A stretch of DNA of 64,000 nucleotides from Protonemura montana (Eukaryota > Arthropoda > Insecta > Plecoptera > Nemouridae). The translations under genes were made by a program, and so were the position numbers. The number at the start of each line of letters is the position of its first letter. Within the stretch, counting starts at the first letter, position 1. The notes under the pieces were generated by a model. That model was not told the origin of the DNA. It worked only from the letters and a program-made list of their open reading frames with translations, and did not search any database. The stretch spans positions 16,826,651 to 16,890,650 of the forward strand of contig OX387603.1 in the NCBI GenBank assembly GCA_947568835.1. The letters run 5' to 3'. Of this stretch, positions 48,372-57,300 are shown piece after piece.

Positions 48372-51300
48372 ATGGCAGAGAATGCAGTTGCAAGTGCTGA
48401 TTGGGCCGTACATGCAGATACGCAAGAAAAGTCCCTCGTGGAGAAGCACTATGGCCAGGTAAGCAGATTTTGGATTGTCGCTCTTGGTTGCTGCATGAAG
48501 TTCCATTGCTGCATTAGAAACCTAACCTTATTCTTTGACATTATACCGGGCTTAATTTGTCATATATCATTGAGCTTAATTGGTATCTCTCTCCTTCTCT
48601 CTCTTCAGATTATAGGGTAATAATGTGCTATACCGCTGCATGGTTTACCATTGTTGGATCGTATTTTACTTTGTATTATTGTATTCCTCGTGCAATTTCG
48701 AGTCGATTTGGGTCTGGAAACATTTGCTCGATGGTTTCTTGCGTTTTCAGTCGGGTTGTTCTATGCGGAATGGTGGCTATTTGACAGGTGGTCGTTTGAA
48801 AATTACACTAAAACAAAACATGTCGTCATGTTGTTCTGGCTAGATTTGATATATTCACTACTTTTTGTTCATTACGTAATCGCCAAGCTTAGTAGCTGCT
48901 AGCAACCCAGACACTCGTCTCCTGCCTTCTAATGGACTGTTACGATGCATGCGGTGAGAGGGGTAAAGCTCTTTCATACATTCGTCGTCGCGATACTGTG
49001 CTAAAAATGCAGAGCGCTAGAAAATGCATTCTACCCATCCAAGAGCCTGCGTGCTAATAATAATAATAGTAAAAGTTTTTTTTATTGCGTTGATTACTTA
49101 GTAATGTGGCAATCGTCTTTAACTTAATAAACTTTACATCATAGATTTACGATCTCTGTCGTCCAGATAAAAAAAAAAAAATCGAAAACAAATTGATTGG
49201 TTGCAAGTCGGGAAGTTTCGAGTTAGTTCCAAACAGACCCTAGTAAGCTCCCAATGCAACAGCCTTAACCAAACGGTTTGGCATGTTGGAAACACCAGTT
49301 CTCGTGAGATCATCGAAGTTAAGCAACACTGCGCTGCGTCAGGTATTGGATGGGTGACCATCATACACATGACCAGTCTGTTCGGGAGAGAGGTTGGAGG
49401 TATGAAAGTTAGTATAGCAACTTCATTCGCCTTGCTTATCAACCTCTCGACAGCATAGATTTGTGGAGGATTCCTGATGTTCGCGTTGTACCGTCCTTAG
49501 GAAGGGACGTTAAGCCAGTGGTCCCCTTGGTGCTATTCGACAGGGGTAGGCTACGTCCTGGCACAGGGTTTCCTCTCCTCCCTTCTAAGCAAGGTTAGGT
49601 TCATCATCATCCTCATCATCATCCTCATAATCATCCGCTCATTCACCGACGCCATTAGACCAATGTCGCAGGGCCAGTTGTCAAAACAGTGCGTTGTTAA
49701 ACCCCAATAATCATCAACAGCTAAGTCTAGTTCCTTACAGCAAATTACAACCAAATGGTTTTTTAAGTATGTTGAAACCATTGAAACCAGACGGGTATTT
49801 TTGTTTTTGGCAGGGAGATGGACCTGGGGAAGGAGATGTTGACACACAGCCCATCAATGTAGCTGACAAGTCTCTTCTGCAGAAGATTATTCGCAAGGGA
49901 CTGGTTGAAAGCCGACATGACATTGAAGTTCAACGCCAAGACCCAACATCTCCTCTTTACGCCACCAGTAGCTTTGAGAGCCTTTCACTGTGAGTGTCCT
50001 GGCTACGATGCATATTTTTTCTGTGGCTTTGTAAAGTCAGGAGGTCTGACTTGGAAAAATACATGTTTTCACCCTGTGCAACTATTAATTCTTTAATCAA
50101 GTGTTTTTATCTGCACTTGATGATTAATGTTATATAAAATTCATGGCAAAAGTTTTAGCTGTGTACCTCGTTTTAGTGAAATTCTTAATACATTTCTTCG
50201 CGTTAAATTTTTACACAATTCATCTGCAGTAACATAAGATAGCAGAATCGAGAAGCTATGTTACCCCAATTTCAGCACTCCATTGTTACAATATACCGCC
50301 TATGCTTGATGGTATTTTTCGTTGTTAAAGATGGGACCAAAAAGGGCTATCTTCAAGAAATTACAATATTTCATCATAACAATTTGATTGAAATTTCCCA
50401 CTTTCACGTTTAAAGGTTCGATATTCCAGATTTGTTCCGGTCTTAACAACAGCTTGTCATAAAGTTTACTACCAATTAGAACTATGTACATACTGAAGAG
50501 AGTTGTTTTTTAACGAGTGTGTGAAATAAAAAATAAACATAAAGCATAAAATCTACGCTCATCCAAAATACACCTAAAATTGCTCTACAGCTCGAGTTAA
50601 GATATATTTAACATTGTCTATTATGTCAACATACTTTCATGTCTTTGCGTAGTTAATGACTCTGGCTGACTGTTGCAGGAAAGCTGATTTGCTGAGGGGA
50701 GTCTATGCCATGGGCTTCAACGTTCCATCGAAGATTCAAACTGCAGCTCTGCCTGCTCTCATGGCTCACCCGTTAGTATAACTTTGGTCTCTTCTTGGGA
50801 CCATGGCTAATTTTAACTTAATGTTATAACTTTAAGGACCTCTTGGCCTTTGTGTATTACATATGAACAGAGAAAAGAAAAAAAGAAAATGCAACTTAAT
50901 GGAGAAGAGATGATCAATTGCAAATATTAAGCTAGGTGCAACTGTTTTTAATTAGCCATTTTTTACCAAAGTTGGTAAAATATGTTTCCTTCTTTCCTTG
51001 CCTGATCACCAGCCACTTAGCCTGCTGTTTTTCTTTGTTACCCGAATGTTGTTAGATAGTGTATTTTTTGTTAAAGTTAGCTGATTGATTTGTTTGCACT
51101 TAACATATGGGTCATTCCATGTGTAATCACTCACCTCAAACTTTGACCGACCCAGATTTTGATGAAAATTGGTATACTTGTTAAGTTTGTTGACTTAGGG
51201 GCTATTTTTTAATTTTTTTTTTTTTGGTCCAACCGTTCGGATATTACAAGGGGGGGAAGTTGGGGTCATTTTGCCCCCCGCGCGTGTAGTGACCACCCTT

Positions 51301-54300: not shown

Positions 54301-57300
54301 GAATCTCTAAATAAAAGGTGCTTGAGAGCAAATTAGCTTCTATCCTCATCAACATGAGGCCAGAGACTGATTGCTTTAGTCCAGACAAGAAATTACCAAA
54401 CTTTTTACTTGTAACCTGTTACAACTTGATCCATGATTCAGGAGCATGACAAACAATCTATAGTTGTATTCTAGGGAATACCATTTTAAGATTCTTGTAG
54501 ATGCAAGTCCAGACAAGAAATGAACAAACTTTTGACTTCTATGAACTGTTTCAACTTGATCCATGATTTACAGGAATATGGCAAACAATCGATTTGTATT
54601 GTAGAGAATAACATTTCAAGAACATGCAACTGTGCAAACAAAAATCAACTTTAATATAAAATATATGCCAGTGCTCTGATCACAATAATTGTGATCAAAA
54701 TGCTGTTCTACTGGCAAAAAGGCACTTTTTTATAGAAAAAATTTTTTTTCTTGGAAAGTGGTAAAACACCCATCTTGATTTTTGGAACACATGATCATAT
54801 GTATGTTCTGTATATATAGAAAAAAAATCAGGCAAATCAAAAATGACTCATCAGCGATATGGTCATTTTGGAAAATGCAGATGTGTAAAATCACAATTAA
54901 ATTCGTATTAACATATCGTCATTTTTGTTTCCATATTCAGGTAGGGTATGAAATTACCTTTCAGATGATTTTTTTCCCAGCTCTGTAGCTCCCATAGAAC
55001 CCTAGATATTGCGTAGAAAGGGTGGTCACTACACGCCCGGGGGGCAAAATGACCCCAACTTCCCCCCCTTGTAATATCCGAACGGTTGGACCAAAAAAAA
55101 AAAAAAAAAAAAATAGCCCCTAAGTCAACAAACTTAACAAGTATACCAATTTTCATCAAAATCTGGGTCGGTCAAAGTGAAATTTAATTAAAAGTGAGTG
55201 ATTACACATGGAATGACCCATATCGTACATATTTTTTTAAATACAAGTTGGTTGTTTTTGTGCTGCTCTGATGACATCTTAAATATTTCACTTTATTATT
55301 TAAGCCCTTTAAATCTGACTTCCAACTATTTTGTGTAATTGTTTTCAGGCCCTGCAACATGATAGCCCAATCGCAGTCTGGAACTGGCAAGACAGCAGCA
55401 TTTGTGTTGGCAATGCTAAATCGAGTTGATCCCTCCCTTAACTATCCTCAGGTAAGTTGCAATGCAAGTTTCAGCAGTTGCCTTTGTCAAATTTTAGAGA
55501 GTACTTCTGGTGACTGTAACATTTATTTTTATAAAATGTAAATATAAAGGTAAAATGATTTATTCAGCTGTTCTTTCAAAGGCACTGCTCTTAAAAATCT
55601 GATAACAGCTCTGGTTCATATTACTTTTCCAAAAGGCAAGATCAAACTAATGCAATCTATGATCAGATATTTTCCTATATCTTCATGGGAATTTTGACTG
55701 ATTGCCAATTTATTATATAAACTATAAAGCAATTAAAATATTCAGTTTGAGTTCCTTGCCTTGATGTAGCGATTTTTCAGGTGTTGTGCCTGTCTCCGAC
55801 GTACGAGCTGGCTATCCAGACCGGTGAAGTGGCTGCAAAGATGGGTCAGTTCTGTCCTGAAATCAAACTACGATTTGCCATCCGCGGAGAAGAAAGTGAG
55901 TCCTTGTTCGGAATTCTACTGGCTATGTGCATCTATCTTACTTTTAGTCAGTAGCTGGCTAGTTTCCAAGTGTATTTATTAAACTGGTGATGATCTATAG
56001 GAATATGATCTTTAGGAAAATGTTTCTAAGAAGTTTTTTTTAGACTGAAAATTTAATATTGATAGAAAAAGATAACATAGTTTTAGAGTAACCTCTTTGT
56101 CGACTCAATAAACAAGCTCATTTTCATCTAAATGATGACTTTTGTTTACAGTCGCTCGTGGCAGCCAGCTAACTGAACATGTGGTGATTGGCACTCCCGG
56201 AAAAGTTCTCGATTGGACCATTAAGTATCGCTTCTTCGATCCATCAAAGATCAGAGTGTTTGTGCTGGATGAAGCTGATGTTATGGTTGCCACTCAGGGC
56301 CACCAGGACCAAACGTACCGCATTCACAAGTGAGCTGCCTGCTGCCCAACAAAACAGAACTACAATCTATTGCATTTTCCTGTCTACTACATTGATAACT
56401 CATTATAATTTTTTCCTGAGTAGACTGCTGGGGCCCTCGTGCCAGATGATGCTGTTTTCGGCTACTTATGAAGAAAAGATTATGTCATTTGCCCGGAACA
56501 TTGTGCCGAATGCCTACGTGATCAGTCTTAAACGCGAGGAGGAAAGTCTTGACAACATCAAGCAGTACTACGTCAAGTGCCGGTCCCAGGAGGAGAAGTA
56601 TGCTGCCATCACCAACATCTACGGGGTGGTCACCATTGGACAGGCCATGATCTTCTGCCACGTGAGTTTTAATTGGTGAACATTGGAAAAGAAACACATC
56701 AATTAATTTAGTAAAACTAAGCACAAGTAATGATAAATTAACAGTGATTATTAGTGGGGGTTTGTTTAGAAGAATTAGACACAAACAAATGTTTGTGGCA
56801 CCAGTGAATGCGCTAAAACTATTTACACTCTTAGACTGAATAATGAAAACATTTTTAATTGTAAGTCAATTAGTATAAGTTAGACTTTGCCCTTAATACT
56901 TGCATGTCGTTTATACTTACGTTTTGAAAAATTTGCAAGATATCATAGCTAACCATGTTGCCTAATTGAAAAATAAAGTCTTATGAAAGATAATAGACTT
57001 GCAACATAGTAATGGGGGAATTCAGAACAAGCATACAATGTGCTTGAGCATACAATATGTTTTCTGAAATCATTGAAAGCCAAGAAGTTTTTATAAAGTA
57101 CTGAACTTTAGTGTGAATGACAGACTTCAGGAATATTTAAAGTGAACATAGTCCATCAACGATTTAAAAAATGTTAAGTCCACGTTGTTAATATTGGGTC
57201 CAAATCAAGTAAATGCCCGGCATTGCTAGTTTCCATAGTTTTTAATATCTGAAGCCATAACCGTTTATCCTAAAAAATGTCTTTCTCTGACAACGTGTTG

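What the first reader, a model, noticed from the sequence alone, without database searches (positions are those of the whole stretch)
51109..55219. Young, structurally intact DNA transposon inside a housekeeping-gene intron
The ~480 bp inverted repeats are almost identical over their inner ~280 bp, the ORF is unbroken for 860 codons, and both ends are preserved with ATAT on each side. This is what a recently moved and possibly still mobile element looks like. It sits antisense in DDX19 intron 3 and leaves both splice sites untouched.
Basis: partly seen in the sequence, partly recalled or inferred. Interest (0 to 1): 0.75.

Follow-up and report, generated by a model that had tools for sequence, protein, structure and literature searches.

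The report
Intact DNA transposon in DDX19 intron
A complete-looking cut-and-paste jumping gene sits backwards inside an intron of a housekeeping gene; it is probably an ordinary, fairly recent insertion of a known kind of transposon, although its exact family could not be proven here.

Summary
Window 51109-55219 (4111 bp) is bounded by inverted repeats of about 480 bp whose outer 26 bp are identical (30 with the flanking ATAT), and carries one 860-codon ORF on the minus strand. It lies wholly inside a DDX19-like intron (50772-55348), 337 bp after the donor and 129 bp before the acceptor; without it the intron would be 462 bp. ATAT flanks both ends: a 4-bp duplication fits best, but 2-bp TA or AT also fits. 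In simulation the open frame survives in 5% of runs at roughly 0.7-1.6% neutral divergence, so 'recent' is fair. 'Still mobile' is untested, as no host genome is held. No relative turned up in profile, PDB, phage, plasmid, viral or prokaryote searches, and structure models were unusable. I file it as a Sola-type transposon, probably Sola2, on the AT-rich duplication, long repeats, element size and candidate catalytic aspartates, not on a sequence match. New member of a known kind, modest interest. In passing: two 5S-rRNA-headed, SINE-like repeats and a palindrome with a TTAGGG loop.

The parts
51105..51108 (.). left ATAT flank, presumed target site duplication
   Evidence: read directly; lengths that fit listed
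51109..51585 (+). left terminal inverted repeat, about 477 bp, begins GGGTCATTCCATG
51715..54297 (-). 860-aa ORF, presumed transposase; Cys/His-rich N-terminus (C40-C108), second Cys/His cluster about 362-426, candidate catalytic D513, D597, D638
   Evidence: ORF; residue positions; zinc-binding and catalytic roles are inference, with no profile or fold support
54378..54621 (.). imperfect tandem duplication (130-bp period, 1.9 copies, 83%) between the ORF start and the right repeat; possible 5' leader or transposase-binding region
   Evidence: function is inference
54734..55219 (-). right terminal inverted repeat, about 486 bp
55220..55223 (.). right ATAT flank, presumed target site duplication
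50680..50771 (+). DDX19 exon upstream of the insertion, ends CACCC|GTTAGT (start read by eye after a CAG; the exact first base may be 50679)
55349..55451 (+). DDX19 exon downstream of the insertion (helicase motif I), begins after TTTTCAG, ends CCTCAG|GTAAGT
   Evidence: exon end read by eye

Best explanation
An autonomous-looking class II (DDE/D, cut-and-paste) transposon, most likely of the Sola2 group, inserted at an ATAT site in an intron of a DDX19-like gene. Shown: both long inverted repeats, one open frame, ATAT on each side, and its location. Inferred: the 860-aa protein binds the repeats through its Cys/His-rich and helix-turn-helix-like N-terminal parts; an RNase H-fold core (candidate D513, D597, D638) cuts the element out; it is joined into 4-bp staggered cuts, and gap repair makes the ATAT duplication. 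The insertion is probably tolerated because it is spliced out with the intron.
For: Intact arms and ends. 863-codon open frame against a maximum of 214 in 300 resamplings. Of nine symmetric end positions tried, only ends at GGGTC allow a 4-bp duplication, ATAT. Published Sola features: DDD transposase, 4-bp duplications, mostly 2-9 kb, repeats 11-1124 bp (PMC10741241, passage). Sola2 elements of two dictyostelids: 4-bp duplications AWWT in one, ATAT, AAAT and ATTT in the other; one putative transposase of 888 aa (PMC3627910, passages). [quoted passage not shown]
Against: No sequence match to any transposase: Pfam, NCBIfam and PDB give only chance-level hits, and I had no Sola2 sequence or profile to compare with. 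The AlphaFold models are unusable (mean pLDDT 34.4 and 34.9) and Foldseek of the core model found no match at E <= 0.001 and no transposase among the 50 rows shown, so the RNase H core is unproven. Duplication length is ambiguous. The dictyostelid Sola2 repeats are 12-21 bp, far shorter than here. The Sola2 reading leans partly on my memory of similar animal proteins.
Confidence: 0.68

Rival explanations
1. A cut-and-paste transposon of another eukaryotic superfamily (a TA-duplicating one, a Chapaev- or Academ-like one, or a lineage not yet named).
For: Duplications of 2 bp (TA or AT) also fit the ends; no profile hit places the protein anywhere; Sola2 was not tested by sequence.
Against: Tc1/mariner, hAT, MULE, piggyBac and P-type transposases usually hit Pfam (recalled), and none did; no C/DxxH motif after D597; the flank ATAT is not the TTAA of Kolobok and piggyBac (PMC9587614, passage).
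Confidence: 0.25
2. A domesticated, host-used gene that happens to retain transposon ends.
For: The ORF is unbroken, and selection could also keep it open.
Against: Complete repeats and a presumed target duplication are still in place, which a long-domesticated gene would be expected to lose; it lies antisense within an intron of another gene.
Confidence: 0.04
3. An old, fixed, inactive insertion that keeps its frame by chance (this concerns age and does not exclude either family reading).
For: The arms differ by six substitutions between 51140 and 51568 and by one unequal patch near the ends.
Against: Simulated neutral decay leaves the frame open in 6.2% of runs at 1% divergence and 0.3% at 2% (indel/substitution ratio 0.1), 14.3% and 2.7% at ratio 0.05, 1.7% and 0.0% at ratio 0.15.
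Confidence: 0.06

Closest known systems
Sola2 DNA transposons (Sola superfamily)
   Same: 4-bp AT-rich target duplication (ATAT among those reported), a putative transposase of 888 aa in one element, element length within the Sola range (PMC3627910 and PMC10741241, passages).
   Different: Repeats of about 480 bp against 12-21 bp in the dictyostelid Sola2 elements described there (but within the 11-1124 bp given for Sola); no second ORF of 100 aa or more apart from one antisense frame of 122 aa inside the main ORF, so no room for a Fanzor gene; sequence relationship not tested.
Kolobok, MuDR, hAT, P and Dada superfamilies
   Same: Inverted-repeat cut-and-paste elements; Mutator elements too can have repeats over 300 bp (PMC10741241, passage).
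   Different: C/DxxH motif absent after the presumed second aspartate; flank is not TTAA (Kolobok), and no symmetric end position tried gives the 7-12 bp duplication of Mutator.
Tc1/mariner
   Same: A 2-bp TA duplication cannot be excluded.
   Different: Protein of 860 aa, repeats about 480 bp, no Pfam match; plant Tc1/mariner elements are given as 1.5-6 kb with repeats of about 30 bp (PMC10741241, passage).

Membership tests
Class II inverted-repeat (cut-and-paste) DNA transposon | Terminal inverted repeats at both ends | tested here: met
Class II inverted-repeat (cut-and-paste) DNA transposon | Target site duplication | tested here: met
   ATAT on both sides; exact length ambiguous between 4 and 2 bp; from one copy only
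Class II inverted-repeat (cut-and-paste) DNA transposon | DDE/D transposase | tested here: inconclusive
   Candidate D513/D597/D638; no profile hit; structure models unusable
Class II inverted-repeat (cut-and-paste) DNA transposon | Multiple copies or empty sites in the genome | not testable with these tools
   No host genome held; within the 64-kb window the 21-base end sequence occurs only at the two ends, up to 3 mismatches
Sola2 | 4-bp AT-rich target duplication | tested here: inconclusive
   ATAT is among the reported Sola2 duplications, but a single copy with a self-complementary site does not fix the length
Sola2 | Transposase sequence similar to Sola2 | not testable with these tools
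   No Sola2 profile or sequence was at hand; the two papers I looked up by DOI, recalled as Bao 2009 and Yuan and Wessler 2011, are not held
Sola (superfamily) | Element length mostly 2-9 kb, repeats 11-1124 bp | tested here: met
   4111 bp and about 480 bp against the ranges in PMC10741241; weakly discriminating
[quoted passage not shown]
   5 C/DxxH strings in the protein, all before D597; depends on my aspartate assignment
Kolobok / piggyBac | TTAA target duplication | tested here: not met
   flanks are ATAT

The most novel reading that the evidence does not exclude
The element belongs to a transposase lineage distinct from Sola2 and without any curated protein model, and is currently active in this host; its inverted repeats (464 predicted base pairs), transcribed in the DDX19 pre-mRNA, form a long double-stranded RNA hairpin that feeds silencing of the family.
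Probability: 0.06. Interest if true: 0.6.

Novelty: new member of a known kind. Interest (0 to 1): 0.25.

Why it matters
If it is a recent, complete Sola-type element, it is a candidate active transposon whose transposase has no match in Pfam, NCBIfam or PDB sequences, so it could help test how such transposases work. The long intronic inverted repeat is also a natural test of whether transcribed transposon ends trigger RNA silencing or editing. Otherwise it is an ordinary intronic insertion.

Tried and rejected
Protein relatives. Pfam, NCBIfam and PDB sequence searches gave only chance-level hits; one search scanned four pieces of the protein (about residues 1-132, 220-479, 480-690, 770-860), leaving out 133-219 and 691-769, which one search had covered. 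The search for related loci found none in 3 scans of viral contigs (whole protein and two catalytic pieces) and 2 of prokaryote genome contigs (whole protein and one piece); with one protein as query these scans use exact 8-residue patterns and reach only close relatives. Of 5 motif scans of viral contigs that ran, 3 returned 15 loci (2, 9 and 4) and 2 returned none. tblastn of the protein against the fetched loci gave best E-values of 0.78 (first 2 loci) and 0.40 (11 loci), and nothing at E <= 1 with all 15, so none was used. tblastn on phages and plasmids found none at E <= 0.1. Eukaryotic genomes were not searchable.

Structure. AlphaFold without an alignment gave mean pLDDT 34.4 for the whole protein and 34.9 for residues 480-690. 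Foldseek of the second model against PDB gave 95 matches at E <= 10 (50 shown), none at E <= 0.001; I draw nothing from it.

Other. The Rfam scan of the window (gathering thresholds) gave only two 5S matches, neither within the element. The bacterial promoter/terminator scan does not apply to an animal genome and was near its shuffled expectation (12 against 10.4, 4 against 2.9). Single-strand DNA folding of one arm gave z -2.11, 2 of 100 shuffles as good, too weak to build on. Third-position G+C of the ORF is 0.38 against 0.44-0.59 in five DDX19 exon blocks, in line with a foreign gene but weak. Papers: of PMC3627910, PMC10294476, PMC9976928, PMC5753468, PMC10741241, PMC11071193, PMC7998251, PMC11245825, PMC4455052 and PMC9587614 I saw passages only; others in search listings only. 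A search for the string DFAENY in the held papers found 0.

Full report
What is there. The element spans 51109-55219 (4111 bp). Its ends are inverted repeats: 30 bp identical including the flanking ATAT (51105-51134 and 55194-55223), then a patch of 5 nt on the left and 15 nt on the right, then 443 nt at 98% (51140-51582 and 54736-55178). The longest fully identical block is 223 bp, 51282-51504. Inside is one long ORF, 51715-54297 on the minus strand, 860 aa; the only other ATG frame of 100 aa or more is 122 aa, antisense to it. The open frame of 863 codons compares with a largest value of 214 in 300 first-order Markov resamplings of the element. Between the ORF start and the right repeat lies an imperfect tandem duplication, 54378-54621, 83%.

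Where it sits. A DDX19-like helicase gene lies on the plus strand: tblastn with a recalled human DDX19B found nine matching blocks from 49862 to 58570, covering query residues 56-477 of the query. The element lies between the exon ending at 50771 (donor GTTAGT) and the exon starting at 55349 (acceptor TTTTCAG). The intron is 4577 bp by these coordinates; without the element it is 466 bp with both ATAT copies, 462 bp with one. The host species is not known; I take it for an invertebrate animal, which is inference.

The target duplication. ATAT stands on both sides. Because ATAT is its own reverse complement, a 4-bp ATAT duplication with ends at GGGTC, a 2-bp AT, or a 2-bp TA with ends at TGGGTC all fit. 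One copy cannot decide this. The 21-base end sequence occurs nowhere else in the window at up to 3 mismatches.

The protein. No curated family matches: Pfam best E 0.051, NCBIfam 0.12, PDB 0.76, all chance level; four pieces scanned separately did no better. No relative was found in viral, prokaryote, phage or plasmid collections; a eukaryotic element need not have one there, and the pattern scans reach only close relatives. Reading the sequence, I place candidate catalytic aspartates at 513 (VVGDFAENY), 597 ([11 protein letters not shown]) and 638 ([10 protein letters not shown]) (positions); this is inference. The Cys/His clusters at 40-108 and about 362-426 suggest zinc binding, and residues 232-273 look like a helix-turn-helix; both are inference by eye. 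AlphaFold without relatives gave models too poor to use.

Age. Simulated neutral mutation leaves this ORF intact in 22.7% of runs at 0.5% divergence, 6.2% at 1% and 0.3% at 2%, with an indel/substitution ratio of 0.1; with 0.05 the values are 37.5%, 14.3% and 2.7%; with 0.15, 15.5%, 1.7% and 0.0% (1500 runs each; four in five indels taken to shift the frame; loss of the start codon not counted). The 5% level falls at roughly 0.7-1.6%. So if unselected, the copy has probably diverged by little more than 1% since it last worked. The arms differ by six substitutions between 51140 and 51568, which fits, but arm identity is not a strict clock. Mobility today is not shown.

Family. Sola elements have DDD transposases, 4-bp duplications, mostly 2-9 kb lengths and repeats of 11-1124 bp (PMC10741241, passage). 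Sola2 elements of two dictyostelids have 4-bp AT-rich duplications (AWWT in one species; ATAT, AAAT and ATTT in the other), and one encodes a putative 888-aa transposase; their repeats are only 12-21 bp (PMC3627910, passages). Sola2 is reported from an ostracod (PMC7998251, abstract passage), bivalves (PMC10294476, passages) and a pygmy mole cricket, there as old copies only (PMC11245825, passage), so its presence in an invertebrate would be ordinary. [quoted passage not shown] I therefore file the element as a probable Sola2 transposon, with the sequence test still to be done. I also recall animal proteins of this kind being labelled Sola2; that is memory, not a result.

Host effect. Transcribed with DDX19, the two arms could pair over 464 base pairs (predicted duplex energy -826 kcal/mol), a long intronic hairpin. 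Whether it is cut, edited or simply spliced away is unknown.

Verdict. It is a new member of a known kind; the interest lies in a possibly active copy of a poorly modelled transposase group, not in a new mechanism.

Noticed in passing
20718-21146 and 49268-49715: Two dispersed copies about 80% alike whose first 120 bp match 5S rRNA (Rfam RF00001, 38.0 bits, just at the threshold, and 54.1 bits), with TCATCATCATCC-like repeats and a shared tail; they look like 5S-rRNA-headed SINEs. A tail fragment lies inverted at 40339-40423.
   Followed up: partly
39441-39666: A 226-bp near-palindrome (87.6% self-complementary) whose centre holds TTAGGGTTAGGGTTAG, a telomere-like hexamer run; perhaps a fold-back element or a repair scar.
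   Followed up: partly
24230-24661, 37872-38348, 40441-40902: Exon-like frames that may belong to a HIF-1-alpha-like gene on the + strand upstream of DDX19. Only the first has a Pfam match (PAS_11, 25.0 bits, exactly at the cut-off; the other two have none); the second holds [10 protein letters not shown], which resembles the oxygen-dependent degradation motif (recalled).
   Followed up: partly
54378-54621: Imperfect 130-bp tandem duplication inside the element between the ORF start and the right repeat.
   Followed up: no
31251-31411 and 34185-34338: Inverted pair about 160 bp, 72% alike, perhaps an old dispersed repeat.
   Followed up: no
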